From a virus, in the IMG/VR virus record IMGVR_UViG_3300037086_000360, positions 1 to 64,000 of that record: a stretch of 64,000 nt of DNA, one strand, 5' to 3'. Position 1 is the stretch's first letter, and each line of letters starts with the position of its first letter. Under the pieces are notes generated by a model, which searched no databases, was not told the DNA's origin, and saw nothing but the letters and a program-made list of their open reading frames with translations. Shown here piece after piece: positions 7,037 to 33,708 of the stretch. A program made the position numbers and the translations under genes.

Positions 7037-7310
7037 AATTTGGGTGCTGGGACCAGCTAAGGCTGGAAAAACAACGTTCATACAAAAAATGTATGACTCC
7101 AAGTTTCTCTTAGAGAATGGCTTAGTCCAAGAATGTCATGAAATGAAGCCTCCTAATAATCCTGCCCATGTGTATATCATACTTCCTCCATATGAGGAGC
7201 TCAAGAAAAGAAGAGATGATGATCCAAAAACGGACTATGAGGCCTGGCTTAATTTTTTCATGAACTATTCTAGAATAGAAAGAAATACTACACTGGTATA
7301 TACGTATTGA
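7026..7310 (+). CDS. small P-loop NTPase-like protein
   Basis: This 94-residue protein has a Walker A motif GPAKAGKTTF at residues 9-18 and an arginine-rich segment (LKKRRDDDP) as in small kinases. It is much shorter than a full nucleoside or guanylate kinase, so it may be a minimal or reduced domain. It is translationally coupled (TTGA overlap) to the degenerate radical-SAM-like protein downstream. Confidence 0.5.
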   Translation: MTNKIWVLGPAKAGKTTFIQKMYDSKFLLENGLVQECHEMKPPNNPAHVYIILPPYEELKKRRDDDPKTDYEAWLNFFMNYSRIERNTTLVYTY

Positions 7311-8167
7311 AAATAAATGTCTTCCTTAACAATAAGTTTCTGAAATACAAAACACCACTCAACATAACAGAGAACCTTGATTTCAAGGTCTTCCTTGACA
7401 TTGCAAAATTTGTTCGAGAAGAAAAACACCTTCTTATTCTACGTGGAGAGCCACCCCTCTACCCTCAATTTGAGAATGCTCTAAAAGAACTCAAAGATGT
7501 TGATTTTATACTCTCGACAGAGGGATATGATGTTGAGAGGCTTATTGCATATCCTAGAAAAATACCCTATCTATCCCTGCTTTATGATGGCTTTAAAAAT
7601 GATGAAATTAAACAAGTACCACTATCTGCCAACATTTTCAGAGTTATCAATAATTTTGCCAACAAAGATTCAATATTCAGATTCAATTACACCATATCTC
7701 CTTTTAATTTTGATTGGTTAGTAATTGACGCACAAATCATGCGTCAATTTATCACTAAATACAAAAACATGGCGCGTCCATTTTTTAATATCTACCAACA
7801 AGGGCTGTTATATGGCGAGTCGACGTTCTCTTGGACACCTCTTACTAAAACATTGATCGATTTTTTGAATCAAACTATGGTTCTCACTGAGAATGAGCTG
7901 AAGACCATGAGTATGTGGCTGACTAAACAACTCTATCAATGTATATCTCCTCAAAACAATATCACAATTATGTCAGATGGAACAATGCGCCTTTGCATGA
8001 GTCATAGGATTAATGAAGTGGTTGCAGACTTAAACAAAATGTCTCTGACGGATGCCACTAGGGTCTCAAAAAATCTTAGGAAGAATGCTGAAGAATGTCC
8101 TTTTAGATTCAGTTGTTGGATGTCCTATCATTTCAAAGACAATGTTGGTACAAAAGACGTCTCATAG
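7307..8167 (+). CDS. radical-SAM/SPASM-like protein lacking the CxxxCxxC cluster
   Basis: This 286-residue protein starts with TTG overlapping the previous stop. LILRGEPPLYPQFENALKEL resembles the GGEPLL motif of radical SAM enzymes. The C-terminal 90 residues resemble a SPASM domain: a cysteine, then SDGTMRLCMSHR, then CPFRFSC. The N-terminal CxxxCxxC that binds the catalytic iron-sulfur cluster is absent. It may be a catalytically dead relative that uses the fold for another purpose. Confidence 0.45.
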   Translation: MKINVFLNNKFLKYKTPLNITENLDFKVFLDIAKFVREEKHLLILRGEPPLYPQFENALKELKDVDFILSTEGYDVERLIAYPRKIPYLSLLYDGFKNDEIKQVPLSANIFRVINNFANKDSIFRFNYTISPFNFDWLVIDAQIMRQFITKYKNMARPFFNIYQQGLLYGESTFSWTPLTKTLIDFLNQTMVLTENELKTMSMWLTKQLYQCISPQNNITIMSDGTMRLCMSHRINEVVADLNKMSLTDATRVSKNLRKNAEECPFRFSCWMSYHFKDNVGTKDVS

Positions 8168-21170: not shown

Positions 21171-23474
21171 ATGGCATTCATAGAAACATCTCAGATCCAA
21201 GCAACACATTTAAAGCAAACTGTCAATCTTGACAGCATTCGTTCAGATATACAGAAAAACAAAGAGCTATCTGAGTTAGCATCGGAGCCTGGCAAGCGTC
21301 CCCTTCCTGTTGGTCACTCTTCTCCTTTCATGGTAGTAGGCCAGGCTCCATCCAAACTGGATGTCAATAGTTTCTTTGAGGATCCGACTCTCAGCAAATA
21401 CATCGATGAAATCTGCGAACATGTTGGTCTCCAAAGAGACGATCTCTATCTTACTTACGCTCTCAAATATCCATTTGCGGGTGATGAGCCCTATTTCAAA
21501 GATGGTAAGGCCCATATTCGCCAGTTCCTCTACAAAGAGATCCTTGCAGTAAACCCTGATATTCTTTTCATCATTGGTAAATGGACTCAAAAACTCTTTG
21601 AAAAGACTTTTCTTTTTGAGTTTTCAGGAGGACTTCAAAAGGTTCTTCTTCAACTTCAGATCGATGAATACAAGCTTGAGTACGAAACGTGGATATATCC
21701 AGTAGATTCAATCGAAGACATTGAACAGTTTGACAAGGTCAAGGACCTCATTGATAGAGTCAAGATCAATTGGAAGTTTGTCCATCTCCATGTCCATGAT
21801 TCTCTTTCACTCAAAGACGGAATTGGAACTCCAGAATCTCGTGTAATGCTTCACTACTCCAGAAAGAAACCGGCCATAGCCATCACAAACCATGGAAACA
21901 TTTGCTCATGGATCTCTGTCTATGAGGGTGCTAAGAAATATGGCATGAAACCAATTCTTGGAGTAGAGGGTTATGTCAATCGTTTTGCAGATGAACTTCA
22001 GGGAGCCCTCAAAGATGACTCTCCAGAAAGCAAACAGAAGAGGAAAGAGCTCAGCAAGAAGGGTTTCCATTGCACTCTCTTTGCAAAGAATCTGATTGGT
22101 TTCAAAAATCTCATTCACATTCACAATGATGCATGGGTGAATCGATTCTATCGTAATCCCATCATGTCGGCAAATGAAATCAAAGCCAATCATGAAGGGT
22201 TGATAGTCCTTTCAGGTTGTTCTTCTGGTGAGCAGAATCGAATCATCTCGGAAAAATACTTCCTCCTTTCAGATCAGAGAAAAGCCCAACTCGATCAACT
22301 CGTTGAAAACAAAGTCAATTCAATGAGAGGGTTGATGAGGACCAAGAATGATGAGAAGTATTCTGAGGATGAATACCTCGATGATCAGGATTTCAAGTGG
22401 TTTTATGCTCATCAAGAAGAAAAGAAGTTCAATGAAGAACTTTATCGTCAGGAAGCTCGAGATTTTGTTGCCAAGTCTGATATAGAGAAGATTGAATCTG
22501 CAGATAAGAGAGTTCGTGAAATAGTTGATTGGTGGAAAGATCTTATGGGTGAAGACTATTTCATTGAGCTCATGACAATCGATTTTCCATTACAGAAGCA
22601 GATCAATCAAGAGCTCATCAAAGTTGCCAAAGAAAAGGGCATAAAGCTCGTCATCACAAACGACTGCCATTATCCTACAAGGACTGACGCAGAGCTTCAG
22701 GAAGTCCAGATGCTCTCAGATCAAAATAAGACTCTTGATGAATTGAAGAACGACAAAGAGGGCAAGATCTGGACAATCAAATCCAAAGAACTCTATTACA
22801 AGAGTGTTGATGAGCTTCATGAGGCATGGGAGACATGGCACAAGTCCGATATATTTACTGAAGAAGTATTTTGGGAGGCCATCCAAAACACAGTTGAGCT
22901 TGTAGAAAAGAAATTTGAAAACTATATTCTCGACAGAAGTGATAAGCTTCCAAAACTATATGATGACTCAAAGACAATATTAGCAAAAAAGATTGCACAA
23001 GGTCTCAAAGACAGAGGTCTTGAAGGCAACAAAGTCTATAAAGATAGGGCTGTCTTCGAATTCAAAGTTATTGCGGACAAGGGATACACCGATTATTTTC
23101 TCATCATGGAAGACATTATTGGTTGGACAAAAAAAACTTATGGTGAGCTTTCGGTTGGACCGGGTAGAGGGTGCTTTGTGCCTGAGACAGAAGTGAGGAT
23201 GGCCAATGACTCATTCAAGAAGATTTCGGATATCAAGAAGAATGATGAAATCACCAGCGGGTGGGGAGCCAAGAGAAAAGTAAAGAATGTTCTTGTGTAT
23301 GATGTGAATGAGAACCTCACTAAGATTAACCTCAAGAATGGTGATTCCATAGATTGTACGAATGATCACGAGATCTTGGTTGTTCCAAAAGGCAAAGAAA
23401 AGAATATAAAGAATGCAATTTGGAAAAAGGCTTCAGAGTTAGAAGAGGGAGATTGTCTGATCAAGGGTGTATAA
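21171..23474 (+). CDS. dnaE: DNA polymerase III alpha, N-terminal fragment: UDG-like domain, PHP, palm start, N-intein 1
   Basis: This 767-residue protein is the first of three polymerase pieces. Residues 1-200 resemble a family-4 uracil-DNA glycosylase (MVVGQAPSKLD, then NPDILFIIGKWTQKLF) but lack the HPS motif. Residues 205-285 are the PHP domain (FVHLHVHDSLSLKDG, AITNHGN, GMKPILGVEGYV). The polymerase core then runs to SVGPGRG at residue 667. Cys 668 opens a 100-residue N-intein. The reading ends at a TAA and a strong terminator, so the rest must be joined by trans-splicing with the fragment at 29875. Confidence 0.85.
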   Translation: MAFIETSQIQATHLKQTVNLDSIRSDIQKNKELSELASEPGKRPLPVGHSSPFMVVGQAPSKLDVNSFFEDPTLSKYIDEICEHVGLQRDDLYLTYALKYPFAGDEPYFKDGKAHIRQFLYKEILAVNPDILFIIGKWTQKLFEKTFLFEFSGGLQKVLLQLQIDEYKLEYETWIYPVDSIEDIEQFDKVKDLIDRVKINWKFVHLHVHDSLSLKDGIGTPESRVMLHYSRKKPAIAITNHGNICSWISVYEGAKKYGMKPILGVEGYVNRFADELQGALKDDSPESKQKRKELSKKGFHCTLFAKNLIGFKNLIHIHNDAWVNRFYRNPIMSANEIKANHEGLIVLSGCSSGEQNRIISEKYFLLSDQRKAQLDQLVENKVNSMRGLMRTKNDEKYSEDEYLDDQDFKWFYAHQEEKKFNEELYRQEARDFVAKSDIEKIESADKRVREIVDWWKDLMGEDYFIELMTIDFPLQKQINQELIKVAKEKGIKLVITNDCHYPTRTDAELQEVQMLSDQNKTLDELKNDKEGKIWTIKSKELYYKSVDELHEAWETWHKSDIFTEEVFWEAIQNTVELVEKKFENYILDRSDKLPKLYDDSKTILAKKIAQGLKDRGLEGNKVYKDRAVFEFKVIADKGYTDYFLIMEDIIGWTKKTYGELSVGPGRGCFVPETEVRMANDSFKKISDIKKNDEITSGWGAKRKVKNVLVYDVNENLTKINLKNGDSIDCTNDHEILVVPKGKEKNIKNAIWKKASELEEGDCLIKGV
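23172..23471 (+). other. split intein 1, N-terminal part
   Basis: It starts CFVPETEVRMANDSFKKISD (block A with Cys1). Block B is visible as CTNDHEILVV (TxxH). It ends EEGDCLIKGV, the usual end of an N-intein. The 100-residue length matches naturally split inteins of phage fractured genes. It interrupts the GPGRG/SAAGS motif of DnaE. The partner C-intein is at 29875-29988. Confidence 0.85.
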
Positions 23475-23508
23475 TACCCTTTCTAGGACAACATTCATAC
23501 AAAAATTA

Positions 23509-23531
23509 GCCCCTCGAAAGAGGGGTTTTTC
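23509..23531 (+). terminator. intrinsic terminator
   Basis: Stem CCCCTC/GAGGGG with a GAAA tetraloop, followed by five T. It ends the first polymerase fragment. Confidence 0.8.
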
Positions 23532-23548
23532 ACTATTGGAGTTTAGAA

Positions 23549-24220
23549 ATGATAATACAATTGGACAAAATTATGAAAGACGGTTCAACTGAAATTGATT
23601 TAGATCAAGTTGAACTAATTGTTTATCACGTTGTTACAGTGAAAGATGAGTATATTGGTGGTGGAACAGGTGAGGATATGCCGGTTGGTATGGAAATTGA
23701 TAGAGTTGTTTGGAGAGATAAATCGAAGGGTGATGAGAGAATTTTTCCGTCTGCAACTGTTTTTGCAAACGAAAATACTGAAAGGGATTTACTACAATAT
23801 GGAAAGGATCATCCATTCTCTCCTGCATTTCCTTGGCCAATAGAACCACGAGAATCAACAGGAATCAAAATATATACTCGTCAGTGGATTCTACAAAAAG
23901 AGGAAGAAGAACATAAAAAAGCAATCAAGTGGTTTATAGAATCCGCATCCAAAGGTCCAGAAGCGGATAAGAAGGCAGAAGAAGCCCTTATGAAAATCGA
24001 TGGTGTAGATGCCAAAGTTATTACAAAAAAAGATGAAAATGATTATACGTTTGAACTCATTTTTGGTTTGATTATTGCTGAAGTTGTGGCATTTCCAGAA
24101 TGGTGGAAGGTGATTACTATTGCAGTTTTTGGTACCATTCTGGTCATGGTAATCAAAAACTGGGGACCTGGAAGGATCATCAATCAAATTCGACACCATT
24201 TCAAAAATCCCTCAGCTTGA
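23549..24220 (+). CDS. hypothetical protein with C-terminal membrane helices
   Basis: This 223-residue protein has a soluble, beta-rich N-terminal 110 residues and a charged helical linker. One or two hydrophobic segments follow near residues 172-205 (FELIFGLIIAEVVAFPEWW; VITIAVFGTILVMVI). It lies inside the first polymerase break. The family is not recognised. Confidence 0.5.
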   Translation: MIIQLDKIMKDGSTEIDLDQVELIVYHVVTVKDEYIGGGTGEDMPVGMEIDRVVWRDKSKGDERIFPSATVFANENTERDLLQYGKDHPFSPAFPWPIEPRESTGIKIYTRQWILQKEEEEHKKAIKWFIESASKGPEADKKAEEALMKIDGVDAKVITKKDENDYTFELIFGLIIAEVVAFPEWWKVITIAVFGTILVMVIKNWGPGRIINQIRHHFKNPSA

Positions 24221-24244
24221 GCATGAACATATAGACGACATCAT

Positions 24245-24273
24245 TTTAGAGCCTTTTGGAGATATGTTAGAAT
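24245..24273 (+). promoter_or_regulatory. sigma70-type promoter TTTAGA-N17-TAGAAT
   Basis: TTTAGA at 24245-24250 and TAGAAT at 24268-24273 with a 17-base spacer. It leads to the secreted protein at 24294 with an AGAGGT ribosome site. Same TTTTAGAGC -35 as two other promoters in the window. Confidence 0.55.
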
Positions 24274-24293
24274 ATTTCAAGAGGTAAACAAGC

Positions 24294-24644
24294 ATGAAGA
24301 AGCTTATTGTAGTTCTGGTCCTGCTCACAATAGCACTGAGTGTTTTTGGTGAGGCCAAGATTGGAACCGGTGATTGGCTTCATGCTGATTGGCTTCACTT
24401 CACCACAAAGTCGGATGTCACCTGGCAGGATTTTTCCTATGGCGGTGAATACTTTGGTTTTGTTGTTGGAGTTGCAAGTCTTGCAGCTAGTTTGAGTGGA
24501 CAGCTACCCCTTTATACTTCTACCGTCGGTATGCGTTTTTGCTATGTTGTTGGAAATTTTCTGGACAAACACCCAGAGAGATGGGCAGAAGATGCTGATG
24601 TTCTAGTAATCGATGCATTGAAGGAAGCATACCCCAAGAGGTAG
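24294..24644 (+). CDS. secreted Rap1a/Tai-type immunity-domain protein
   Basis: This 116-residue protein has a signal peptide (MKKLIVVLVLLTIALSVFG). The mature part, FGFVVGVASLAASLSGQ, a conserved FC, FLDKHPERW and VIDALKEAYPKR, follows the pattern of the Rap1a/Tai domain. That domain inhibits peptidoglycan amidase effectors in the periplasm. In a phage it could protect the infected cell or time lysis. It is transcribed alone between a sigma70-type promoter and a terminator. Confidence 0.55.
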   Translation: MKKLIVVLVLLTIALSVFGEAKIGTGDWLHADWLHFTTKSDVTWQDFSYGGEYFGFVVGVASLAASLSGQLPLYTSTVGMRFCYVVGNFLDKHPERWAEDADVLVIDALKEAYPKR

Positions 24645-24660
24645 TCTTGTTTGAAAAAAC

Positions 24661-24684
24661 GCCCCTCAAAAGAGGGGCTTTTCA
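24661..24684 (+). terminator. intrinsic terminator
   Basis: Stem GCCCCTC/GAGGGGC with an AAAA loop and a T-rich tail. It ends the immunity-like gene and lies right before the next promoter. Confidence 0.8.
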
Positions 24685-24685
24685 T

Positions 24686-24715
24686 TTTAGAGCAGATGTC
24701 TATCTGGTGTATAAT
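24686..24715 (+). promoter_or_regulatory. sigma70-type promoter TTTAGA-N18-TATAAT
   Basis: TTTAGA at 24686-24691 and TATAAT at 24710-24715. The expected start site, about 7 bases after the -10, coincides with the A of ATG 24722, so the mRNA would be leaderless. Confidence 0.6.
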
Positions 24716-24721
24716 GATGAT

Positions 24722-27700
24722 ATGAGTAGAGCAACAAGTACTTTTGCAGTAAGAGAAATGTCACTTCAAGAAGCCATTAACAAGTGGGGTCAGAAAAAGG
24801 GACTATATTTGCTCTTTTATCAAAATCCTGACACGGGAGAATGTTTCTATAAGCTTGGATACTCAAAAGATATCACGAGTCGATTTCAACAATATCCTCT
24901 TACAGTGAGAGTTTTGCATTTCTTTGTTGGAGAAAACTATTTCGACAGACCCTGTCAAACTCAATTGCGCAAATGGGGTTTCAAGTTCAGAACGAATGTT
25001 GTCAATCTTAATGATACAGAGTGGATGGAAGCTCTCAATGGAATTCGCAATGATGAAGAGCATCTCAAGTGGTCCCAGGAAGCGATCAATGTAGTTTTTC
25101 ATGAAAAAGAGGATTATCGACTTCTTCATCTAGAAACGTATAAACCCGATTCACTTCAACAGCCAATTATTGATGAAACCTTCAGAGACCTCATGTCTCA
25201 GAGGATTAATCCGAGATATCTCATTCATGCTGAAACAGGCTCAGGCAAAACTCTTATGGGGTATAAGATCGCTCTCAAAATTGTCAAAAGCCTACCCGAC
25301 AAGAAAGCTACAATCATTGTGATTCTCACATGGAAGCCAAAAGTTCTTATAGATTGGGAATCATATGTAAATGGAAATGAAAACGGAAAACTTCCTCATA
25401 AAGATCTTCGAGGGGCGTTCAAATTTACCACTGATGCGGAACAAGCAAAGAAATGGATCAAAGATCCTGAAGACGATAGGGCTATTGTAATTGGTCTCAG
25501 CGCCTTCAAACTCATGGTTGATGCAAAAAAGGAAGATGCTGATGAAGAAGACCCAAAATCGTATCAAAAGAAATGGAACTTCATATACAACTACAGAATC
25601 GCACTTCTAATCACCGATGAGGTGCATTATGGTGCAAGCGGAAAAGCCTTTTTTCATCTTACGGCAGAAGAAGAAGAGGACAATTATGAGAGCAAATTTG
25701 ATGGTCAATTTCAGTTTGATAAGTTATTGGCTCTTAGCGCAACTCCATTTCCAAATCTTCGCTATTCTGACTTCTATCACGGGCATCTCTCAAAACTCAC
25801 TAGCGATGAACAAGTTGCTCTTCGGGAAGCTGTGAGGAGTGGCAAAAATATTGAAGAGCGTGATCAACGCTACAAAGATTACCCCGATGTTGATTATGCG
25901 ATCATTCAGTGTGATCTAGAAGTCCAAGAAAATGCAATTTCTTCTGGTCGTGATATATTTAGCATTGACTATCTCTTTATAGATCCGACTCTTAAGCCGT
26001 ACGCTAATCAATCTTTGAGAAAGCTCAGAACTGCTACTATGAAGGGAGAAGATCCTGGAGACGATTTGGAAGGGCCCCCATTTACCTTTCTTGAGAAATA
26101 TGATCACGTCATCGTGAGAACAAGACGAAGAATAGCGGCCCAAAATGCTATTCAGCTTTTTGATAACGACTCATCATATGATGAGTATATAAAAATTGAT
26201 GGACCTGGTTCTGGTTACGACAAAACGAAGCTTGACAAAATTTTGAATGAGAATTCAAATGTGATGTTTGGAACTGCGGGTGGCTTGATGACTGGTTGTG
26301 ATATGCCGAGTATGAACAAGTTGATTAATCTCGGCACCATAAAATCATCTGTTACTCTAGCTCAAGATGTTGGCAGAATAAGAAGAATATACCCCGGCAA
26401 GGATCGAGCCTTGGTTGTTTTTCTTTCTCCTGATGTTGAAACGACTCTTGTCGATATTGCAAAATCTTGGTGCATAATTAGAAAAGAAGGCGAAAGTGAA
26501 GAAGACGCAGTCAAAAGAAATCCGTCATTCGACAAGGTTGCTCTCTATAACATTGATAGTTTTAGAATGGCAAATTGGAATGATTTCAATTCGGCTCTCA
26601 ACAAGGCTTACCTGAGGGAAGCTGAAAGTGGTAGAATTTCAAGCCAACTCTTTACTGAAGAAGGGTTGCATTTTCTAATCCAGAATGTGTTCATTAATCT
26701 CAAGATTGATAAAAAAGGCAAAATTGTTTTAGTAAAGAGTAAATATAAGAGAGGCCAATCAACCACAAGAGTCATAACAGACTCTAGTCGCGATAAAAAC
26801 AAAAATGGAACTAAAGAAGTTGATTATACAAAGCTGCTTTCGGCGATTGCATCAAATTTTATATTGATATTGAAATCAGATCGAAACGGTTCTGCAAGAG
26901 AAATTATTGAGCGTAATGTCGAGGTCCTAGCTGAGTTTTGCAACACCAATCTTGAAACAATTCATCTTTTGTTTGCAAATGGAGTTAATTGGTCCGCGGT
27001 ACAAAAACTGATGGATTCTGGAGCGATTGATTTACTGCCGGACAATTATGAGGGATCTTTTCAAACTGTTCCAGAATCTCTTGCTGATAAAATGGAAAAA
27101 GAGTGCTATAAGAATGCGTCAATAAATAAAACTTGGAAAGAAAGCACTTCAATTCCTGGTGGTGGTAAATATCTAGTGGATAGAGCTTTGAAGCACTGTG
27201 AACATGTTACATATGCTGCTCACTCTCAGGAAGAAAGATTTTTTATGCAGGGACAATACAAAAGCGTCGAGAATTCAAACGGAGAGCGCAGAGTTCGTGT
27301 CGTAATGTGGAAAGATTTCGAAAAGGAAACTGAAATGGGTGACAAATATTGTATTCTTAACCCGCCGTACGGCAGAATGCATCTCAGGATTCTCAAGAAA
27401 ATGATTGAATTAATAGTAAACAAAAATAACGGAAAAGTAGTAAGCTTACAGCCAGTTCGTTGGCTGCAAGATCCTTTGATTGATTCGAAAGAAGATAGTG
27501 TTGAAATGAGATCTTTTCTCGAGGGTAAAACAACTATCGAAATAATTACTAAGAATGAAGCAGCTAGAATTTTCAATATACCGATAGCTATGGATATTGG
27601 AATTTACAAGATCGGTCCTAAAACTAAGATCTCTCTTGATACTGTTAGACAGCCCGTTATAGCAAGACATTTGCTGAAGAAAGACAACTTGAAAAATAGT

Positions 27701-28168
27701 GGACTTATCAAAACGACTGTTGGTAAGTCAAAGACTGGTAATTTTGTTTTGCTTCTTATGATTGGAGCTTCTGGAGGACATCGAAAAGAGAGTCATGTTT
27801 CTTCTATTGTTCGCGAGTCTTATGGAGTTTTTGTGAATTTCAAGAATGAACATGGAAGAACTGTTCTAGAACAGAAGAAAACGGATCCAAAATCGACAAA
27901 TGGTAATCCAGAAAATTGGCCATGTATAGAATTTGAAACTGGAGAAGAAGCTATAAACTTTTGGAAGTATTGCCATTTGGCAGATATGCGCTATTTTGCC
28001 CGAATGTCATCAAACGATGTCAATGTCCAAACCAATTATCTTCCATTCCCCCGTGAGCGGGATGCTTTCAAGAATGAATGGACAGAAGGCCACTTTCATA
28101 AATATTGGAAAATCGAAAAAGAAAAAAAAGAGATTGAAAAAATTATGAGAGAAATTGATGCGAACTAG
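24722..28168 (+). CDS. GIY-YIG nuclease - SF2 helicase - adenine methyltransferase-like fusion
   Basis: This protein of about 1148 residues starts at ATG 24722. Residues 30-75 resemble a GIY-YIG/T5orf172 nuclease (GLYLLFYQNP, FYKLGYSKDITSRFQQYP). The SF2 helicase has Walker A AETGSGKTLMG near residue 170, TDEVHYG (DExH) near 300, LSATPFPN near 340 and QDVGRIRR near 550. The last third holds an NPPYGRMHL motif near residue 880 of N6-adenine methyltransferases, but the S-adenosylmethionine motif before it is degenerate (IPGGGKYLV). A restriction-modification or anti-defence enzyme is inferred. It lies inside the first polymerase break and overlaps the truncated methyltransferase. Confidence 0.6.
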   Translation: MSRATSTFAVREMSLQEAINKWGQKKGLYLLFYQNPDTGECFYKLGYSKDITSRFQQYPLTVRVLHFFVGENYFDRPCQTQLRKWGFKFRTNVVNLNDTEWMEALNGIRNDEEHLKWSQEAINVVFHEKEDYRLLHLETYKPDSLQQPIIDETFRDLMSQRINPRYLIHAETGSGKTLMGYKIALKIVKSLPDKKATIIVILTWKPKVLIDWESYVNGNENGKLPHKDLRGAFKFTTDAEQAKKWIKDPEDDRAIVIGLSAFKLMVDAKKEDADEEDPKSYQKKWNFIYNYRIALLITDEVHYGASGKAFFHLTAEEEEDNYESKFDGQFQFDKLLALSATPFPNLRYSDFYHGHLSKLTSDEQVALREAVRSGKNIEERDQRYKDYPDVDYAIIQCDLEVQENAISSGRDIFSIDYLFIDPTLKPYANQSLRKLRTATMKGEDPGDDLEGPPFTFLEKYDHVIVRTRRRIAAQNAIQLFDNDSSYDEYIKIDGPGSGYDKTKLDKILNENSNVMFGTAGGLMTGCDMPSMNKLINLGTIKSSVTLAQDVGRIRRIYPGKDRALVVFLSPDVETTLVDIAKSWCIIRKEGESEEDAVKRNPSFDKVALYNIDSFRMANWNDFNSALNKAYLREAESGRISSQLFTEEGLHFLIQNVFINLKIDKKGKIVLVKSKYKRGQSTTRVITDSSRDKNKNGTKEVDYTKLLSAIASNFILILKSDRNGSAREIIERNVEVLAEFCNTNLETIHLLFANGVNWSAVQKLMDSGAIDLLPDNYEGSFQTVPESLADKMEKECYKNASINKTWKESTSIPGGGKYLVDRALKHCEHVTYAAHSQEERFFMQGQYKSVENSNGERRVRVVMWKDFEKETEMGDKYCILNPPYGRMHLRILKKMIELIVNKNNGKVVSLQPVRWLQDPLIDSKEDSVEMRSFLEGKTTIEIITKNEAARIFNIPIAMDIGIYKIGPKTKISLDTVRQPVIARHLLKKDNLKNSGLIKTTVGKSKTGNFVLLLMIGASGGHRKESHVSSIVRESYGVFVNFKNEHGRTVLEQKKTDPKSTNGNPENWPCIEFETGEEAINFWKYCHLADMRYFARMSSNDVNVQTNYLPFPRERDAFKNEWTEGHFHKYWKIEKEKKEIEKIMREIDAN

Positions 28169-28595
28169 GTCTTATTATCTCACTACTGAACATATTGAGA
28201 GCGATCACTTAGATAAAAAAACAAAAAGCAATAATGGGGCTTTTTATACACCAGCCACTCTCTCCATAAAGATGGCTAAAAAATTAGAATTGAAGAAAGG
28301 TGACACCGTGCTTGATCCATGTGTTGGAAGCGCTAATCTTTTATGTGCGTGTCTCGATGAATATCCAGATCTACAAGAAGAAGATTGCTATGGAATTGAT
28401 ATAGATCCAGAAGCAATTAAGAAGTGTTTTGAAAGAATACCACATGGCCACTTTCAAGTTGGCAATTGTCTAATAGATGACCTGTCTGATGAAAATTTTT
28501 GGAAAAAAGATCCATATGACATCTCTGACACTTATAGAAGAGTTTCAAATAAGAACTGTTTGAATCATCTTCCGCATCATCCACTCCTGATCTGA
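28158..28595 (+). pseudogene. truncated DNA adenine methyltransferase (N-terminal half)
   Basis: This 145-residue product has NNGAFYTPATLSIKMAKKL, motif I VLDPCVGSANLL and CYGIDIDPEAIKKC. It reaches FWKKDPYDI, where the family continues into the catalytic NPPY motif. Here the similarity stops and the frame ends about 30 residues later in sequence antisense to a minus-strand gene. The catalytic half is missing. It may complement the NPPY-bearing fusion protein just upstream, or be a deletion remnant. Confidence 0.55.
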
Positions 28596-28835
28596 TTCTT
28601 TGATGTGCTCCCAAAAATAAGAAGTGATGTCTGTGTCCTCTTCATCTTTGTGTGAATGAATATGAAATAAATATGTTCCTTTCTTTGGAGGAAGATTTCT
28701 TTGATTGTTTGGTAGATTGTCCCAGCTGATCCGAAGCTGAGCCCCATCAAAACTCCAAATAACAATTTCTACTCCGGTATCATATTTGCTATAGAAGATC
28801 TGCATATAGATTATCTTTGTGAAGATAGTGATCAA
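28545..28835 (-). CDS. hypothetical minus-strand protein
   Basis: This 96-residue frame starts with TTG behind GAGAGG. GVEIVIWSFDGAQLRISW and GTYLFHIHSHKDEE look like real protein rather than a shadow. It fills the otherwise empty gap before the endonuclease and overlaps the broken end of the methyltransferase. It may be a relic of a deleted region. No family is recognised. Confidence 0.4.
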   Translation of the reverse strand: MITIFTKIIYMQIFYSKYDTGVEIVIWSFDGAQLRISWDNLPNNQRNLPPKKGTYLFHIHSHKDEEDTDITSYFWEHIKESDQEWMMRKMIQTVLI

Positions 28836-28839
28836 TAAG

Positions 28840-28871
28840 CCTCTCTTTTGTAAGATAAGTACAAGAAGAGG
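28840..28871 (+). promoter_or_regulatory. hairpin masking the endonuclease ribosome site
   Basis: CCTCTCTTTTGT (28840-28851) can pair imperfectly with ACAAGAAGAGG (28861-28871) around a 9-base loop. The 3' arm holds the AGAAGAGG ribosome site of the gene at 28883. It parallels the stronger hairpin at 30572. Confidence 0.45.
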
Positions 28872-28882
28872 TACCCCGGCTA

Positions 28883-29893
28883 ATGAAAATAAAGATTTAT
28901 AATAAAGTGTTTGATTTGAAAGACGACTGCCCTACTGAAGTAATGGAAGAACTAAAAAAGAGAAACAAGACAATTTCTTCAGATTTATTTTTCAAATACT
29001 ATGACTATTGGCCATCATCACATAAATTGATTATTGGACCTTGTGCAGTTTGTGGTACGGAATGTAAAAATCAAATACCTAAAATAAGGTATAGAACCTA
29101 TGCTCCTGGAAAACTACTTTGTAGAAAATGTAGTGCCAAGGAACCTGGAAAACATCCAGAGTTCTTGAAGAGAAATTCTGATGCTCAACATATCGCACAA
29201 AATAGGCCTGAAGTAAAAAAGAAAATGTCGGAATCACTCATAAGAACTTGGAGTGATGAAGAAACAGCAAAAAGATGGGCTGCAGGAATTGCTCGCAATA
29301 ATAGTAGCAAAGAGGGTAGAGAAGCAACAAGCAGAGCTTCAAAACGTCTTTGGCAAGATGAAAAATATAGAAGCAAAATGCTCGATTCGTTTATTGGATT
29401 CAGAGGAGTCTCTGGTTATTTTCTTACCAAAAATAGTGGAAAGATTCGATTTGACAGCACTTACGAGTTCTTCTATCTCTTCTTCGAAGATCTAAAAGGC
29501 AACAAAATAAAGAGATTTGGCGGTGAAATAAAGTATGTTCTCAATGGAATGACAAAAGGATATAGACCAGATTTCATTGATCAAAACAACAATCTGATTG
29601 AAATCAAATCTTCTTATGTAAGAGATGTCTATAATGGACTAGAAGAATTGAATGCAAAAAGAGATGCCGCAAAGAAGTTCATAGAAGAGAATGATTACAA
29701 CGACTATTATCTCTTGGAAGAAAGAGACTTGAATCTATACGCGAAACTAAGACTTCGTTATCAATTGATGTTTCTCATGAGAAGAGATGGGCATATATCT
29801 ATTCATCATGGTAAAGTATCAGACTTCAAGGAGTCTTCAGTCTCCTTGAAGAAGGCAGAGGAGTTTTACAAAGAATGGAATTCGTTGAAGTAA
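28883..29893 (+). CDS. free-standing homing endonuclease, PD-(D/E)XK type
   Basis: This 336-residue protein begins with a zinc-ribbon ([16 protein letters not shown]). Two NUMOD3-like DNA-binding repeats follow ([36 protein letters not shown]). The catalytic region has [12 protein letters not shown], then [20 protein letters not shown] (PD ... ExK). It lies directly before the next polymerase fragment and overlaps its start by 19 bases. It would promote spread of the first break. Confidence 0.7.
29824..29851 (+). other. 10-bp inverted repeat upstream of middle polymerase fragment
   Basis: CTTCAAGGAG at 29824-29833 and CTCCTTGAAG at 29842-29851 form a perfect 10-bp stem with an 8-base loop inside the end of the endonuclease gene. 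The ribosome site of the next gene lies just outside it. It might affect translation or mRNA stability; no role is shown. Confidence 0.35.
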
Positions 29894-29988
29894 AGAGCGT
29901 TGAATCCCTTCCATATAAAGGCAAAGTATATGATCTAGAAGTCGAAGTAGATCACTGCTACACTGCAAATGACTACTCTGTTCATAAC
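29875..29988 (+). other. split intein 1, C-terminal part
   Basis: A 38-residue C-intein with block [21 protein letters not shown] and terminal His-Asn followed by Ser+1. Length and layout match C-inteins of known phage fractured genes. Confidence 0.85.
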
Positions 29989-30570
29989 TCAGCAGCTGGA
30001 AGCCTCGTCAACTATCTCTTGAGAATTACTGATATCGATCCAATCAAACACGATCTTCTTTTCGAACGTTTCCTTGATATGGGAAGAAAAGATTTACCAG
30101 ACATTGATTGTCTTCATGAAAGAACTGCAGTAAAAATGGCTGATGGATCAATAAAAGAATTGAAGAATATAAAAGTTGGTGATGTTGTCTTGGATCATAT
30201 GGATCATCAACAAAAAATTTTGAATTGGGCATCTCGCAGTGCCAAAGTCGGATTTGAAGTTGTTGTTGAAATAGTAATTGAAAATAATGGTGAATTAGGA
30301 TCATTCATTTGTCCAGGACATCATAGAATGATACTTGATTCAAATGAAGTGAGATATGCCTATGATCTAAAAATTACAGATTGTATCAAGTCTTTTGGCA
30401 GAGATAGGGCGCTAATAATAGCCATCAATAAGGTTGATATTTCTTATAATGAAATCACTCTATGTGATATCCAGGTAGAGAATAGTGAAACATTTCAAAT
30501 CTATCCTTTTAGAGTAAATGATGACTTGACAGCTATTGACATGCTTTATAAAAATTTGAACAAACGATAG
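29875..30570 (+). CDS. dnaE: DNA polymerase III alpha, middle fragment: C-intein 1, 40-residue extein, N-intein 2
   Basis: This 231-residue protein starts behind AGAGGAG, overlapping the endonuclease. Residues 1-38 are the C-intein, ending DYSVHN. Residues 39-78 are the only polymerase sequence: [18 protein letters not shown] through DLPDID, i.e. the GRGSAAGS motif and the first catalytic aspartate. Cys 79 opens a second N-intein of 153 residues. This piece must be spliced at both ends to give an active polymerase. Confidence 0.85.
30109..30567 (+). other. split intein 2, N-terminal part
   Basis: It begins [20 protein letters not shown] (block A). Block B is CPGHHRMIL. Unlike intein 1 it also holds what looks like block F ([16 protein letters not shown]) near its end. 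At 153 residues it contains almost the whole Hint fold, leaving only the last strand and block G to the partner fragment at 31684. Confidence 0.75.
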
Positions 30571-30571
30571 C

Positions 30572-30620
30572 ATTTTGCTCCAAGTCTGTAAGATAATGTA
30601 AATACAGACTTGGAGCAAAT
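30572..30620 (+). promoter_or_regulatory. 17-bp hairpin masking the endonuclease ribosome site
   Basis: TTGCTCCAAGTCTGTA near 30575-30590 pairs with TACAGACTTGGAGCAA near 30603-30618 around a loop of about 12 bases. The 3' arm contains the TTGGAG ribosome site of the endonuclease whose ATG is at 30621. T4 I-TevI is silenced in early transcripts by a comparable hairpin. Confidence 0.7.
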
Positions 30621-31703
30621 ATGAATAAGTTATTGGATTTCTTCTTGAAAAATGATGAAAATAAGAATAAAGAATTGAATGAGATAGTTCTTGATTGGAT
30701 GAGGGAAGAGGCGCCCTCTCTTTTGCTTGAAAAAGAAATGAATTGTATATTATCCCACAAGCAAGAGTCGAATACTACTTATTTTTATATGGACCCATTT
30801 CTAATAGCACCATACTTCTCCATCCATATAGATGGTAACGTATTGCCATTGAGTTTTTCTATAAGACCTGTCTTAAGATCTAGAAGTAGAGTGAAAGTAG
30901 ATTGTCTAAATATAGATCAGAGGAAACCAACAAAATATAGTTTTTCATTCAAATGTTTGTCTTGTGGGAAACTAAAAGAAAATCTGCAAACAAAAGATTT
31001 ATATCACAAAATGTTGGATGCCGGTCTGGTGTGTAAACATTGTAAAAAAACAGTGGCCCATCGAACTAATGAGACAATCAGCAGATACTCTCATTCTATG
31101 AATGAGAAGTATGGATGTTCTTTTCCTATTCAAAGCAGTGAACTAAAGAAAACTATAAGAAAAACGATGTTTAAAAGGTATGGATGTGAAACCTCATTCA
31201 ATAATGGAATCTTGAGAGATAAGGCCAATAAGACGATAATAAAAAAATATGGTAAGGGTTCAGTTTCTTATGGGGGTGGTTCTTCTTCTTTATTGGAAGG
31301 TAGTTTTATTGAACAATTCTTGATGAAATACTCTAAACTCTATCCCATAGGCGATTTATATTGTCGTGAGTTGAATAAACAATATTTCGTTGACACTGCT
31401 AATGGAAGAAGACGATTGGACTTATACATCAAATCTAAAAAAATTGCCATCCAAGTTCATGGTGATTTTTGGCATGGAAATCCAGAAGCCTTTCCTAGAG
31501 ATAAAATCAATCCAATATTGAAAAAATCTTATGGTGAGATATATGAAGAAACTCTAAAAATAGATCAAGAGATTTTAGATACTAAAAAGGTTGATCTATA
31601 TATAGTTGTTTGGGAGAAAACGATTTCCTATGGCATATATCCTATAATAGACAGGGTAATTGAACTTATTGAAGGCGGTAAAAATGGATCTTTCTATCTA
31701 TAA
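30621..31703 (+). CDS. free-standing homing endonuclease, EDxHD (Vsr-like) type
   Basis: This 360-residue protein has an N-terminal part with two CxxC pairs (CLSCGK, CKHCKK) and two NUMOD-like repeats around KYGCSFPIQSSELKKTIRK. The catalytic core is RRRLDLYIKSKKIAIQVHGD, then FWHGNPEAF, the D ... H-G-D-x-W-H signature of Vsr-related homing endonucleases. This family is known from phage genes fractured by split inteins. The stop overlaps the next fragment's start by 20 bases. Confidence 0.75.
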   Translation: MNKLLDFFLKNDENKNKELNEIVLDWMREEAPSLLLEKEMNCILSHKQESNTTYFYMDPFLIAPYFSIHIDGNVLPLSFSIRPVLRSRSRVKVDCLNIDQRKPTKYSFSFKCLSCGKLKENLQTKDLYHKMLDAGLVCKHCKKTVAHRTNETISRYSHSMNEKYGCSFPIQSSELKKTIRKTMFKRYGCETSFNNGILRDKANKTIIKKYGKGSVSYGGGSSSLLEGSFIEQFLMKYSKLYPIGDLYCRELNKQYFVDTANGRRRLDLYIKSKKIAIQVHGDFWHGNPEAFPRDKINPILKKSYGEIYEETLKIDQEILDTKKVDLYIVVWEKTISYGIYPIIDRVIELIEGGKNGSFYL

Positions 31704-31731
31704 CACTTCATTTACTCTTTGTTCTCACAAC
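31684..31731 (+). other. split intein 2, C-terminal part (about 16 residues)
   Basis: Only LSIYNTSFTLCSHN before Cys+1 remains, ending in the required His-Asn. This is far shorter than the 35-40 residues of usual natural C-inteins. Confidence 0.65.
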
Positions 31732-33708
31732 TGCGACTTTGAGCCAAGAATCCGAGACTCAGTCATCCAATATATGATCAAGCGCTTTGGCAAAGACAAC
31801 GTAGCACCCATTGGAACATTTGGTATTCTCAAAACGAGGAGTGCTATTCTCGATGTAGCAAGAGTATGCAACATCCCTCCTCAGGAAACCATGGCGGTTA
31901 CTACAAAACTGCCAAAAGATCTTGATGAAAACGACGATCTTGCAACTCTTGAGGAAGATTATCCCGCACTCAAAGCGTTTCTCGACAAGTGGGAAGCTGA
32001 AGGAAAACCACTTCGCTATTATATCAATGGGATCAGAGGTGGCGCTCGCAATGTTTCTCAGCATGCCGCAGGAGTACTACTCTCTTCAAATAAACTCGTT
32101 GATAATGTAGCGCTTATCAAAACGAAGAAAGGGATCGTCACCGGATGGGTTGAAGGAGCTGGTGGAAGAGAGCTTTCAGATCTTGGATATGCCAAATACG
32201 ATATTCTTGGTCTTAACAACCTACAGGTAGTCAACGATACTCTTACTCTCATAAAGAAGAGAAGGGGCATTGATGTCGAAATTACAAAAATTGACCTTGA
32301 TGATCCAAAGGTTTATGCTGAAGTTGTTAAACCTCAAGATCACATGGGAGTTTTCCAGTTTGAAAGTGGATTAGTGCGCAAATTGATGAAAGATATTCTT
32401 CCCGACAATTTCAACGAATTGTCGGATATTTCAGCATTAATCCGTCCGGGACCTCTCAAAATGAAGATGCCAGAAGAATATGCAAATCGCAAGCATCGTA
32501 GGCCTGATGACCATGGAAGAACATGGACCTCAGATGATATTCTTCCAGCACTTCGGCCAATTCTTGGTCGTACATTTGGAATCATTATCTATCAAGAGCA
32601 AGTTATGCAGATCGCGGAAGTTCTTGGTGGATTCTCAAAGACTGAAACCAATAGTCTCCGCAAACTCATCATTAAGTATGGAAAAGTATCTCAAGACGAT
32701 CCTCAATACCAAAAGAATGTCAAGAAGTATCACGACCAGTTTATTGATAATGCAGCAAAACCCGATAAATTGGGTGATAGACTTGCTGCAGAAGAACTTT
32801 GGCAGTTGATGGTAGCGTTCTCAAATTACGGTTTTAATTTGTCGCATTCCGTTTCTTATACATACACCTCAATCAGAGAGTATTGGTTGAAGTGTTACTA
32901 TGCTGCAGAGTTCAATGTCACTCTTCTCAACAACACTCCAAGAAGCAAGGAAAAGAAGGGTGAGAGCATTATGGGTGAGTATATCACAAACATGATGAGG
33001 AAGGGTTTCAAAGTAGCACAGCCCTCTGTCAATGAATGTTTTGCAAATTTCACACTCAAATCAGATGATGAAATTGTGTGGGGATTGGGTTGGATCAAAA
33101 ACCTTCCAGAAGGTTCTATTGATGCAATTGTTGAAGAACGAACCAAGAACGGCAAGTTTGAATCTGTTGATGATCTCTACAAGAGAGTTGGCAGCAAGGC
33201 TCTCAACAAGAGAGCAGTTGATGCTCTAGTTTGGTCAGGATGTCTTGATGAGTTTGGTGAGAGAGCAGAATTGGCCGATCATATCTACACAACACTTAGG
33301 GGTGATAAGAAATACGCCCCCGAAAAGATCACTCCTAAGAAGAGAACTGAAAAGGAAATCGAGCTTCTTGGTCTTTCATTGAACGAGATGCTCTCATTCA
33401 AAAGCTTGAGAGAAGAAGCAGAGCGTTCCACCTCACTTCATATGGATACCCTCACAGAAGTAGCAGTTGCTGGAGAGTATTATTGTGTTGGAAAAGTGAC
33501 GAAGCTCGAGAAGAAACAGACCAAGACCAAAAAGGACTATGTTCGTATTTCTTTGAAGGACGAAACAACAACTCAAAGGAATATATATTGCTGGCCGTGG
33601 CAGGCCAAACGAATCTTTGAACTTCATATGGATGATGTGGTTCTTGCTAAGATTGTCAATGACGGAAATTTCGTCAATTTGATGCAGTTTCAAAAAGTTC
33701 TAGAGTAA
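31684..33708 (+). CDS. dnaE: DNA polymerase III alpha, C-terminal fragment with very short C-intein 2
   Basis: This 674-residue protein starts at ATG 31684 behind GAAGGCGG. The first 16 residues (MDLSIYNTSFTLCSHN) would be the C-intein and Cys 17 the splice residue. The extein then continues CDFEPRIRDSVIQYM, so splicing restores PDID-C-DF with the second catalytic aspartate. The third catalytic Asp is in YDILGLNNLQ (residue 173). Helix-hairpin-helix and OB-like regions follow in the C-terminal half. A TTG at 31660 would add 8 residues. The spliced enzyme would be about 1365 residues. Confidence 0.8.
   Translation: MDLSIYNTSFTLCSHNCDFEPRIRDSVIQYMIKRFGKDNVAPIGTFGILKTRSAILDVARVCNIPPQETMAVTTKLPKDLDENDDLATLEEDYPALKAFLDKWEAEGKPLRYYINGIRGGARNVSQHAAGVLLSSNKLVDNVALIKTKKGIVTGWVEGAGGRELSDLGYAKYDILGLNNLQVVNDTLTLIKKRRGIDVEITKIDLDDPKVYAEVVKPQDHMGVFQFESGLVRKLMKDILPDNFNELSDISALIRPGPLKMKMPEEYANRKHRRPDDHGRTWTSDDILPALRPILGRTFGIIIYQEQVMQIAEVLGGFSKTETNSLRKLIIKYGKVSQDDPQYQKNVKKYHDQFIDNAAKPDKLGDRLAAEELWQLMVAFSNYGFNLSHSVSYTYTSIREYWLKCYYAAEFNVTLLNNTPRSKEKKGESIMGEYITNMMRKGFKVAQPSVNECFANFTLKSDDEIVWGLGWIKNLPEGSIDAIVEERTKNGKFESVDDLYKRVGSKALNKRAVDALVWSGCLDEFGERAELADHIYTTLRGDKKYAPEKITPKKRTEKEIELLGLSLNEMLSFKSLREEAERSTSLHMDTLTEVAVAGEYYCVGKVTKLEKKQTKTKKDYVRISLKDETTTQRNIYCWPWQAKRIFELHMDDVVLAKIVNDGNFVNLMQFQKVLE

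What the first reader, a model, noticed from the sequence alone, without database searches (positions are those of the whole stretch)
21171..33708. DNA polymerase III alpha gene fractured twice by two split inteins
Seen: three separate frames encode N-extein (667 residues) plus N-intein, C-intein plus 40-residue extein plus a second N-intein, and a short C-intein plus 658-residue extein. Joined, the exteins form one continuous polymerase of about 1365 residues. Known: single fractured genes with one split intein and one free-standing endonuclease were described in phage and metagenomes by Dassa and co-workers. A double fracture of one polymerase is the unusual part. Inference: active polymerase needs two trans-splicing reactions.
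Basis: partly seen in the sequence, partly recalled or inferred. Interest (0 to 1): 0.92.

Follow-up and report, generated by a model that had tools for sequence, protein, structure and literature searches.

The report
Phage polymerase gene split in three
A very large bacterial virus carries its only detectable DNA-copying enzyme gene as three separate pieces whose ends carry two different self-splicing tags, one of them cut at a place so far reported only in laboratory-made versions, so the virus probably has to stitch three proteins into one before it can copy its DNA.

Summary
Three ORFs (21171-23474, 29875-30570, 31684-33708) encode 667 + 40 + 658 extein residues. Joined, they form one gap-free DnaE of 1365 aa (157 kDa). 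The breaks fall at GPGRG|SAAGS and at PDID|CDF, between two catalytic aspartates. No other DnaE copy lies in the 250-kb virus record. Intein 1 is canonical (100-aa IntN, 38-aa IntC). The same site carries inteins in many other viral DnaEs, and in two of them it is fractured with an endonuclease homologous to HEG1, so fracture 1 is a known kind. Intein 2 is the new part: its IntN alone covers positions 1-132 of a 138-position mini-intein profile, and its IntC is only 16 aa, of which about 7 (FTLCSHN) look native. This is an 'S11' split, which the papers I could read report only as engineered. No second example was found. Most likely both junctions trans-splice, each fracture having arisen by insertion of a free-standing endonuclease gene whose 3' end now holds the next piece's start codon. 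Trans-splicing itself is inferred. Main rival: a non-covalent polymerase with a dead intein 2. Verdict: new variant of a known kind (fractured genes).

The parts
21171..23171 (+). N-extein of the polymerase, 667 aa: UDG-like domain (50-146), PHP domain (205-371), start of the DNA_pol3_alpha domain, ending ...SVGPGRG
23172..23474 (+). IntN1, 100 aa (CFVPETEV...), block B TNDH, stop TAA
   Evidence: TIGR01445, Intein_splicing; profile match
23549..28595 (+). Genes inside break 1 that are not part of the polymerase: ORFs 23549-24220 (unknown), 24294-24644 (phrog_3870), 24647-28168 (helicase-like, with an NPPY motif near the C-end), 28155-28595 (N6-methyltransferase N-half)
28883..29893 (+). HEG1, 336 aa, putative free-standing nuclease (phrog_33911; RPDF...LIEIK, PD-(D/E)XK-like by eye) of break 1
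   Evidence: homologues at the same break in L080 and L110
29875..29988 (+). IntC1, 38 aa [38 protein letters not shown]; its start overlaps the end of HEG1
   Evidence: Intein_splicing 120-155, TIGR01443
29989..30108 (+). Middle extein, 40 aa [40 protein letters not shown] (holds the first Asp of the PDxDxDF motif)
30109..30570 (+). IntN2, 153 aa (CLHERTAV...), stop TAG; residues 1-132 (30109-30504) match an intein profile through block F, residues 132-153 are a tail
30621..31703 (+). HEG2, 360 aa, homing endonuclease of break 2 (phrog_3339; weak Vsr match; zinc-finger-like CxxC pairs)
31684..31731 (+). IntC2, 16 aa MDLSIYNTSFTLCSHN; start overlaps the end of HEG2; about the last 7 residues look like native intein
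31732..33708 (+). C-extein, 658 aa CDFEPRIRD... (second Asp of PDxDxDF, fingers, HHH, OB-like), stop TAA

Best explanation
This is a phage replicative polymerase (DnaE-type DNA polymerase III alpha) encoded as a doubly fractured gene. Two inteins sat 40 residues apart in the most conserved part of the gene. Each was broken by insertion of a free-standing homing endonuclease gene that carries its own start and stop. The endonuclease's 3' end now overlaps, and holds the ribosome-binding site and start codon of, the next polymerase piece, so the pieces may be translationally coupled to the endonucleases. After translation, IntN1 (piece 1) pairs with IntC1 (piece 2) in the ordinary way and ligates GPGRG to SAAGS. 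IntN2 (piece 2) is a nearly complete intein lacking only its last strand and the HN terminus. Piece 3 delivers these as a 16-residue N-terminal peptide that docks like the C-part of an engineered 'S11' split intein, and PDID is ligated to CDF. Only then are two catalytic aspartates on one chain. Shown from sequence: the pieces, the junctions, the intein parts, the split positions, the nuclease genes and the absence of another copy in the record. Inferred: both splicing reactions, translational coupling and the insertion history.
For: Exact tiling of the polymerase profile and gap-free junctions. Intact splicing residues: Cys1 in both IntN, block B TNDH (IntN1) and CPGH (IntN2), block F Asp in both, HN|S and HN|C. 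IntN2 residues 1-132 match positions 1-132 of a 138-position mini-intein HMM built without it (E 2e-10). The gp41-1 intein aligns through block F. The AlphaFold model of IntN2 (pLDDT 78) matches whole intein structures. The last six residues of IntC2 fit the last six profile positions (8.6 bits) and the IntN2 tail does not (0.0 bits). In all four endonuclease/IntC pairs (two in the window, plus L080 and L110) the IntC ATG lies about 14-20 nt before the endonuclease stop. HEG1 homologues sit at the same break in L080 and L110. Single copy in the record; no other inteins there. The C-extein matches Taq and E. coli Pol III alpha structures through the polymerase core. GC falls to 0.32-0.33 over the second intein/endonuclease stretch against about 0.40 in the exteins.
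Against: No experiment. No second natural S11-type split or site-2 intein was found, so intein 2 cannot be checked by comparison. IntN2 has a 22-aa tail, and AlphaFold puts its residues 134-137 as a strand where the last strand belongs, so IntC2 would have to displace it or the tail must be out of the way. Block B of intein 2 has CxxH rather than TxxH. IntC2 does not score on its own in a whole-profile search because it is so short. Only 4 of 14 mini-inteins engineered as S11 splits trans-spliced in the study read (PMC3620165).
Confidence: 0.68

Rival explanations
1. Intein 1 splices, but intein 2 is dead or only cleaves. The polymerase works as a non-covalent complex of chains that meet near the PDID motif, as presumably in other phages with a two-ORF DnaE, or in a nucleotide reductase split by a homing endonuclease.
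For: Several phage DnaEs are encoded as two ORFs with the C-half beginning roughly 100 residues before PDID and no intein there: L047, L338/L351, L133, L178, L197. IntN2 carries a 22-aa tail and AlphaFold fills the last-strand position with it. A nucleotide reductase split by a homing endonuclease into two peptides keeps its function (PMC10448857, citing Friedrich 2007).
Against: In those two-ORF polymerases the C-half has its own N-terminal segment before PDID (e.g. NNVLSLYLLGLSEYPKKLRHYYSLADMADVDMDF). Piece 3 here has none and begins with HN exactly before the extein. IntN2 keeps Cys1, the block B His and the block F Asp, and its frame is open. Under relaxed constraint an exact HN|C end facing an exact PDID|C start would not be expected to persist.
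Confidence: 0.22
2. Decaying gene: the double break is the wreck of a polymerase gene that no longer makes a working enzyme, and the phage uses the host polymerase or one outside the record.
For: The record may be incomplete; 5.4 kb of other genes have accumulated in break 1; only one such locus is known.
Against: All three extein pieces are open over 1365 codons with conserved catalytic motifs, both intein pairs keep their terminal residues, and each piece has a plausible ribosome-binding site. No frameshift or internal stop.
Confidence: 0.06
3. Artefact or RNA-level event: an assembly chimera, sequencing frameshifts, or self-splicing introns rather than split inteins account for one or both breaks.
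For: One metagenomic contig; neighbouring positions in L063 and L113 are broken at LP^DIDIDF by something that does not look like an intein.
Against: No Rfam intron in 21-34 kb of the window up to E 0.1. Intein models and HN ends mark both breaks at exact codon boundaries. The same arrangement at break 1 occurs in independent contigs L080 and L110. TAG read-through joins nothing.
Confidence: 0.04

Closest known systems
Fractured genes of Dassa et al. 2009 (paper not held; known from citations and my own knowledge) and the AceL NrdHF split intein (Hoffmann 2020, PMC7891396)
   Same: Phage gene broken at a conserved motif; split intein halves on the two sides; free-standing homing endonuclease gene between; downstream piece with its own start
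   Different: Two fractures in one gene 40 codons apart, each with its own apparently unrelated nuclease; about 5.4 kb of other genes also in break 1; the second split is not at the canonical position
Viral DnaE inteins at GPGRG|S: split with an endonuclease in L080/L093 and L110, split without one in L103, continuous in L063, L065, L067, L086 and others (this work)
   Same: Same insertion site as intein 1; in L080 and L110 a homologous nuclease and the same overlap of nuclease stop and IntC start
   Different: None has an intein at PDID; none of the split ones has long cargo between IntN and nuclease
[quoted passage not shown]
   Same: Split between the last two strands; large N-part (127-165 aa there, 153 here) and tiny C-part ending in HN
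   Different: Natural; C-part carries a 9-residue leader that mostly overlaps the nuclease gene; N-part has a 22-residue tail; activity unknown
Natural atypically split inteins (AceL-TerL, VidaL, PolB16; PMC13014065)
   Same: Natural, one very short fragment
   Different: There the short fragment is the N-part (15-37 aa), split at S1 or S2; here the C-part is short
Cyanobacterial split DnaE inteins (Ssp, Npu DnaE; own knowledge)
   Same: DnaE cut in two and trans-spliced
   Different: One break at a different site, canonical split, no endonuclease gene in the break; here phage, two breaks, at GPGRG|S and PDID|C

Membership tests
Fractured gene with split intein | Host gene in separate ORFs that together encode one protein without gap or overlap | tested here: met
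Fractured gene with split intein | Intein N-part after the upstream extein and C-part before the downstream extein at each break | tested here: met
   for IntC2 only the last ~7 residues are intein-like
Fractured gene with split intein | Free-standing homing endonuclease gene in the break | tested here: met
   HEG2 matches homing endonuclease PHROGs; HEG1 has homologues in the same break of L080 and L110 but no family named as endonuclease
Fractured gene with split intein | Trans-splicing activity | not testable with these tools
   needs expression
S11-type split intein | N-part reaches through block F (strand 11) | tested here: met
   HMM 1-132 of 138; gp41-1 alignment; model with strand 128-131
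S11-type split intein | C-part is the last strand ending in HN, a few residues long | tested here: met
   TLCSHN 8.6 bits, random hexamers reach it in 0.02%; but it sits on a leader of about 9 residues
S11-type split intein | Last-strand position on the N-part is free for docking | tested here: inconclusive
   AlphaFold places tail residues 134-137 as a strand there, at lower confidence, with the alignment biasing towards it
DnaE-type DNA polymerase III alpha | PHP, polymerase core with PDxDxDF, fingers, HHH | tested here: met
EDxHD/Vsr-like homing endonuclease (HEG2) | Vsr-like nuclease core | tested here: inconclusive
   Vsr models hit weakly (E 0.002-0.003) over the VHGDFWHGN stretch; structure prediction failed (pLDDT 33); no PDB match by sequence
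Group I intron interruption | Catalytic intron RNA at the break | tested here: not met
   no Rfam match in 21-34 kb of the window up to E 0.1

The most novel reading that the evidence does not exclude
The first natural S11-type split intein, with a C-part of about 7 native residues on a 16-residue peptide, created when a homing endonuclease gene landed in the loop before the last intein strand. It sits between two catalytic aspartates of a replicative polymerase that is broken a second time 40 residues upstream, so genome replication depends on two orthogonal trans-splicing reactions, and deletion of either endonuclease gene would remove the start site of an essential polymerase piece.
Probability: 0.58. 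Interest if true: 0.78.

Novelty: new variant of a known kind. Interest (0 to 1): 0.68.

Why it matters
Split inteins with one very short fragment are prized for protein labelling. A 2026 paper describes natural atypical split sites only near the N-terminus (PMC13014065), and Hoffmann et al. 2020 predicted that split variants so far only made in the laboratory might exist in nature (PMC7891396). This locus offers a natural candidate with a short C-part, plus a natural pair of presumably orthogonal inteins that build one protein from three chains, which chemists now engineer by hand. It also shows how a selfish nuclease could become locked in: the essential polymerase piece takes its start codon from inside the nuclease gene. 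The second break, between two catalytic residues, would keep the polymerase inactive until spliced, an easily testable claim.

Tried and rejected
Stop-codon recoding (two CTA-anticodon tRNAs are in the record): reading through TAG does not join any pieces. Introns in the breaks: no Rfam match. A second, intact dnaE: none in the record. Close relatives of the polymerase in viral contigs by single-protein search: none; by alignment, only 27-36% identical proteins, none with an intein at PDID. Pattern scans for PDID|C in viral contigs and in a truncated scan of bacterial genomes gave only chance hits; the HN|CDF pattern gave one chance hit. A nine-sequence alignment was too divergent to search with. 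AlphaFold of HEG2 without an alignment failed, so its family rests on sequence. Sequence searches of the PDB with both nucleases found nothing. The helicase/methyltransferase cargo has no phage relative by tblastn; the defence library gave mostly generic methyltransferase and weak helicase matches, best mad2 at 9e-15 for the short methyltransferase ORF, not followed. The Dassa 2009 and Carvajal-Vallejos 2012 papers are not held, so I could not check whether a double fracture was reported there.

Full report
WHAT IS THERE. The window is bases 1-64000 of a 250,111-base virus record. Three plus-strand ORFs encode parts of one DnaE-type DNA polymerase III alpha. Piece 1 (21171-23474) holds 667 extein residues (UDG-like and PHP domains, start of the polymerase domain) plus a 100-residue intein N-part. 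Piece 2 (29875-30570) holds a 38-residue intein C-part, 40 extein residues and a second intein N-part of 153 residues. Piece 3 (ATG 31684 to 33708) holds a 16-residue intein C-part and 658 extein residues. The Pfam polymerase profile is tiled 3-66, 66-106 and 106-260. In an alignment with eight uninterrupted viral DnaEs both junctions are gap-free, and the joined product is 1365 aa and 157.4 kDa. The first aspartate of the PDxDxDF motif lies in piece 2 and the second in piece 3; that these are catalytic in Pol III alpha is established knowledge of the family. Piece 3 aligns with Taq and E. coli Pol III alpha structures, E about 1e-72 to 1e-78. No other polymerase III alpha and no other intein was found in the record.

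FRACTURE 1 IS A KNOWN KIND. A pattern scan for VGPGRG|C in viral contigs found about two dozen viral dnaE loci with an intein at exactly this site. Many are continuous. Others are split: L076/L077/L098, L080/L093, L103 and L110. In L080 and L110 the break holds an ORF homologous to HEG1 of the window (BLASTP E 5e-21 and 1e-15). In each, the ATG of the IntC piece lies about 14-20 bases before the stop of the nuclease gene, as at both breaks of the window (IntC1 ATG 29875 against HEG1 stop ending 29893; IntC2 ATG 31684 against HEG2 stop ending 31703). What differs is that the window has 5.4 kb with four other ORFs between IntN1 and HEG1 (23549-28595).

FRACTURE 2 IS NEW. I built a mini-intein profile from ten viral site-1 inteins, without IntN2. 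IntN2 residues 1-132 match positions 1-132 of 138 (E 2e-10 among the four sequences searched, 29 bits). The best solved relative, gp41-1, aligns through its block F, which in the natural gp41-1 lies on the C-part. An AlphaFold model of IntN2 (mean pLDDT 78; alignment rows were viral inteins) matches complete intein structures. So IntN2 is an almost complete intein lacking only the last strand and the HN terminus. IntC2 supplies them: its last six residues (TLCSHN) score 8.6 bits against the last six profile positions, a value reached by 0.02% of random hexamers, while the ungapped continuation of IntN2 scores 0.0. The residues before TSFTLCSHN are coded inside the nuclease gene. This is the 'S11' split position between strands 11 and 12, which Lin et al. 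2013 engineered with N-parts of 127-165 aa and C-parts of 6-7 aa; 4 of 14 trans-spliced (PMC3620165).

HOW IT LIKELY WORKS. Two inteins probably sat in two of the most conserved motifs. Each was then broken by a free-standing endonuclease gene. HEG2 matches a homing endonuclease PHROG (1.4e-6) and weakly Vsr; HEG1 belongs to a different, unnamed family (phrog_33911). Each leaves its 3' end as the translation start of the following piece. After translation the two inteins splice in trans. Their sequences differ, which fits orthogonality, but that was not tested. Splicing is inferred, not shown.

DOUBTS. IntN2 carries 22 residues beyond strand 11, and AlphaFold places residues 134-137 as a strand in the last position; the alignment used biases towards this, and whether the tail blocks IntC2 is open. 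Block B is CPGH instead of TxxH. Some phages have a DnaE in two ORFs broken just before PDID without any intein (L047, L133, L197, L338), so a non-covalent polymerase is possible. There, however, the C-half has an extra N-terminal segment that piece 3 lacks. The record is one metagenome contig, so read-level confirmation is wanted. The founding paper on fractured genes could not be read here.

VERDICT. Observation confirmed. Fracture 1 is a new member of a known kind. The double fracture with a natural S11-type split inside the active-site motif is a new variant. Confidence that both junctions trans-splice is about 0.68 (junction 1 alone about 0.88).

Noticed in passing
L047, L338/L351:9737-12010, L133, L178, L197: Several phage DnaEs have a C-half ORF that begins roughly 100 aa before the PDID motif with a segment resembling NNLL..LLG; in G001 the N-half is about 14 kb away and in G002 it lies downstream of the C-half. 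Apparently natural two-chain polymerases without an intein at that point.
   Followed up: partly
window:24647-28168 and 28155-28595: A DNA methyltransferase looks permuted or broken: an NPPY motif is near the C-end of the helicase ORF, and the SAM-binding N-half is in the next, short ORF (best PADLOC match mad2, 9e-15).
   Followed up: no
window:21171-23171, residues 50-146: A uracil-DNA-glycosylase-superfamily domain (Pfam 3.6e-8) is fused in front of the PHP domain of the polymerase.
   Followed up: no
L013:13217-13367 and the whole record: The record carries about 63 tRNAs and a tmRNA (tag ANNFALAA), including two adjacent CTA-anticodon tRNAs (possible amber suppressors), although TAG ends about a third of the long ORFs.
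   Followed up: partly
L063 (around 7120-7611), L113:3302-4110: Two related viral dnaE genes are broken at LP^DIDIDF, three codons from break 2 of the window; L113 has a GIY-YIG-like ORF just after the break. No Rfam intron reaches threshold. The PDID codons may be a hotspot for different mobile elements.
   Followed up: partly
L088:5109-13535: A single 2809-aa viral dnaE frame with HN[CST] motifs at four places, suggesting several inteins in one DnaE.
   Followed up: no
L013:16873-18705, L007:13154-15043, L008:1189-2778: Host-like genes in the virus record: FtsH protease, Hsp70, and a TROVE (Ro60-like) protein.
   Followed up: no
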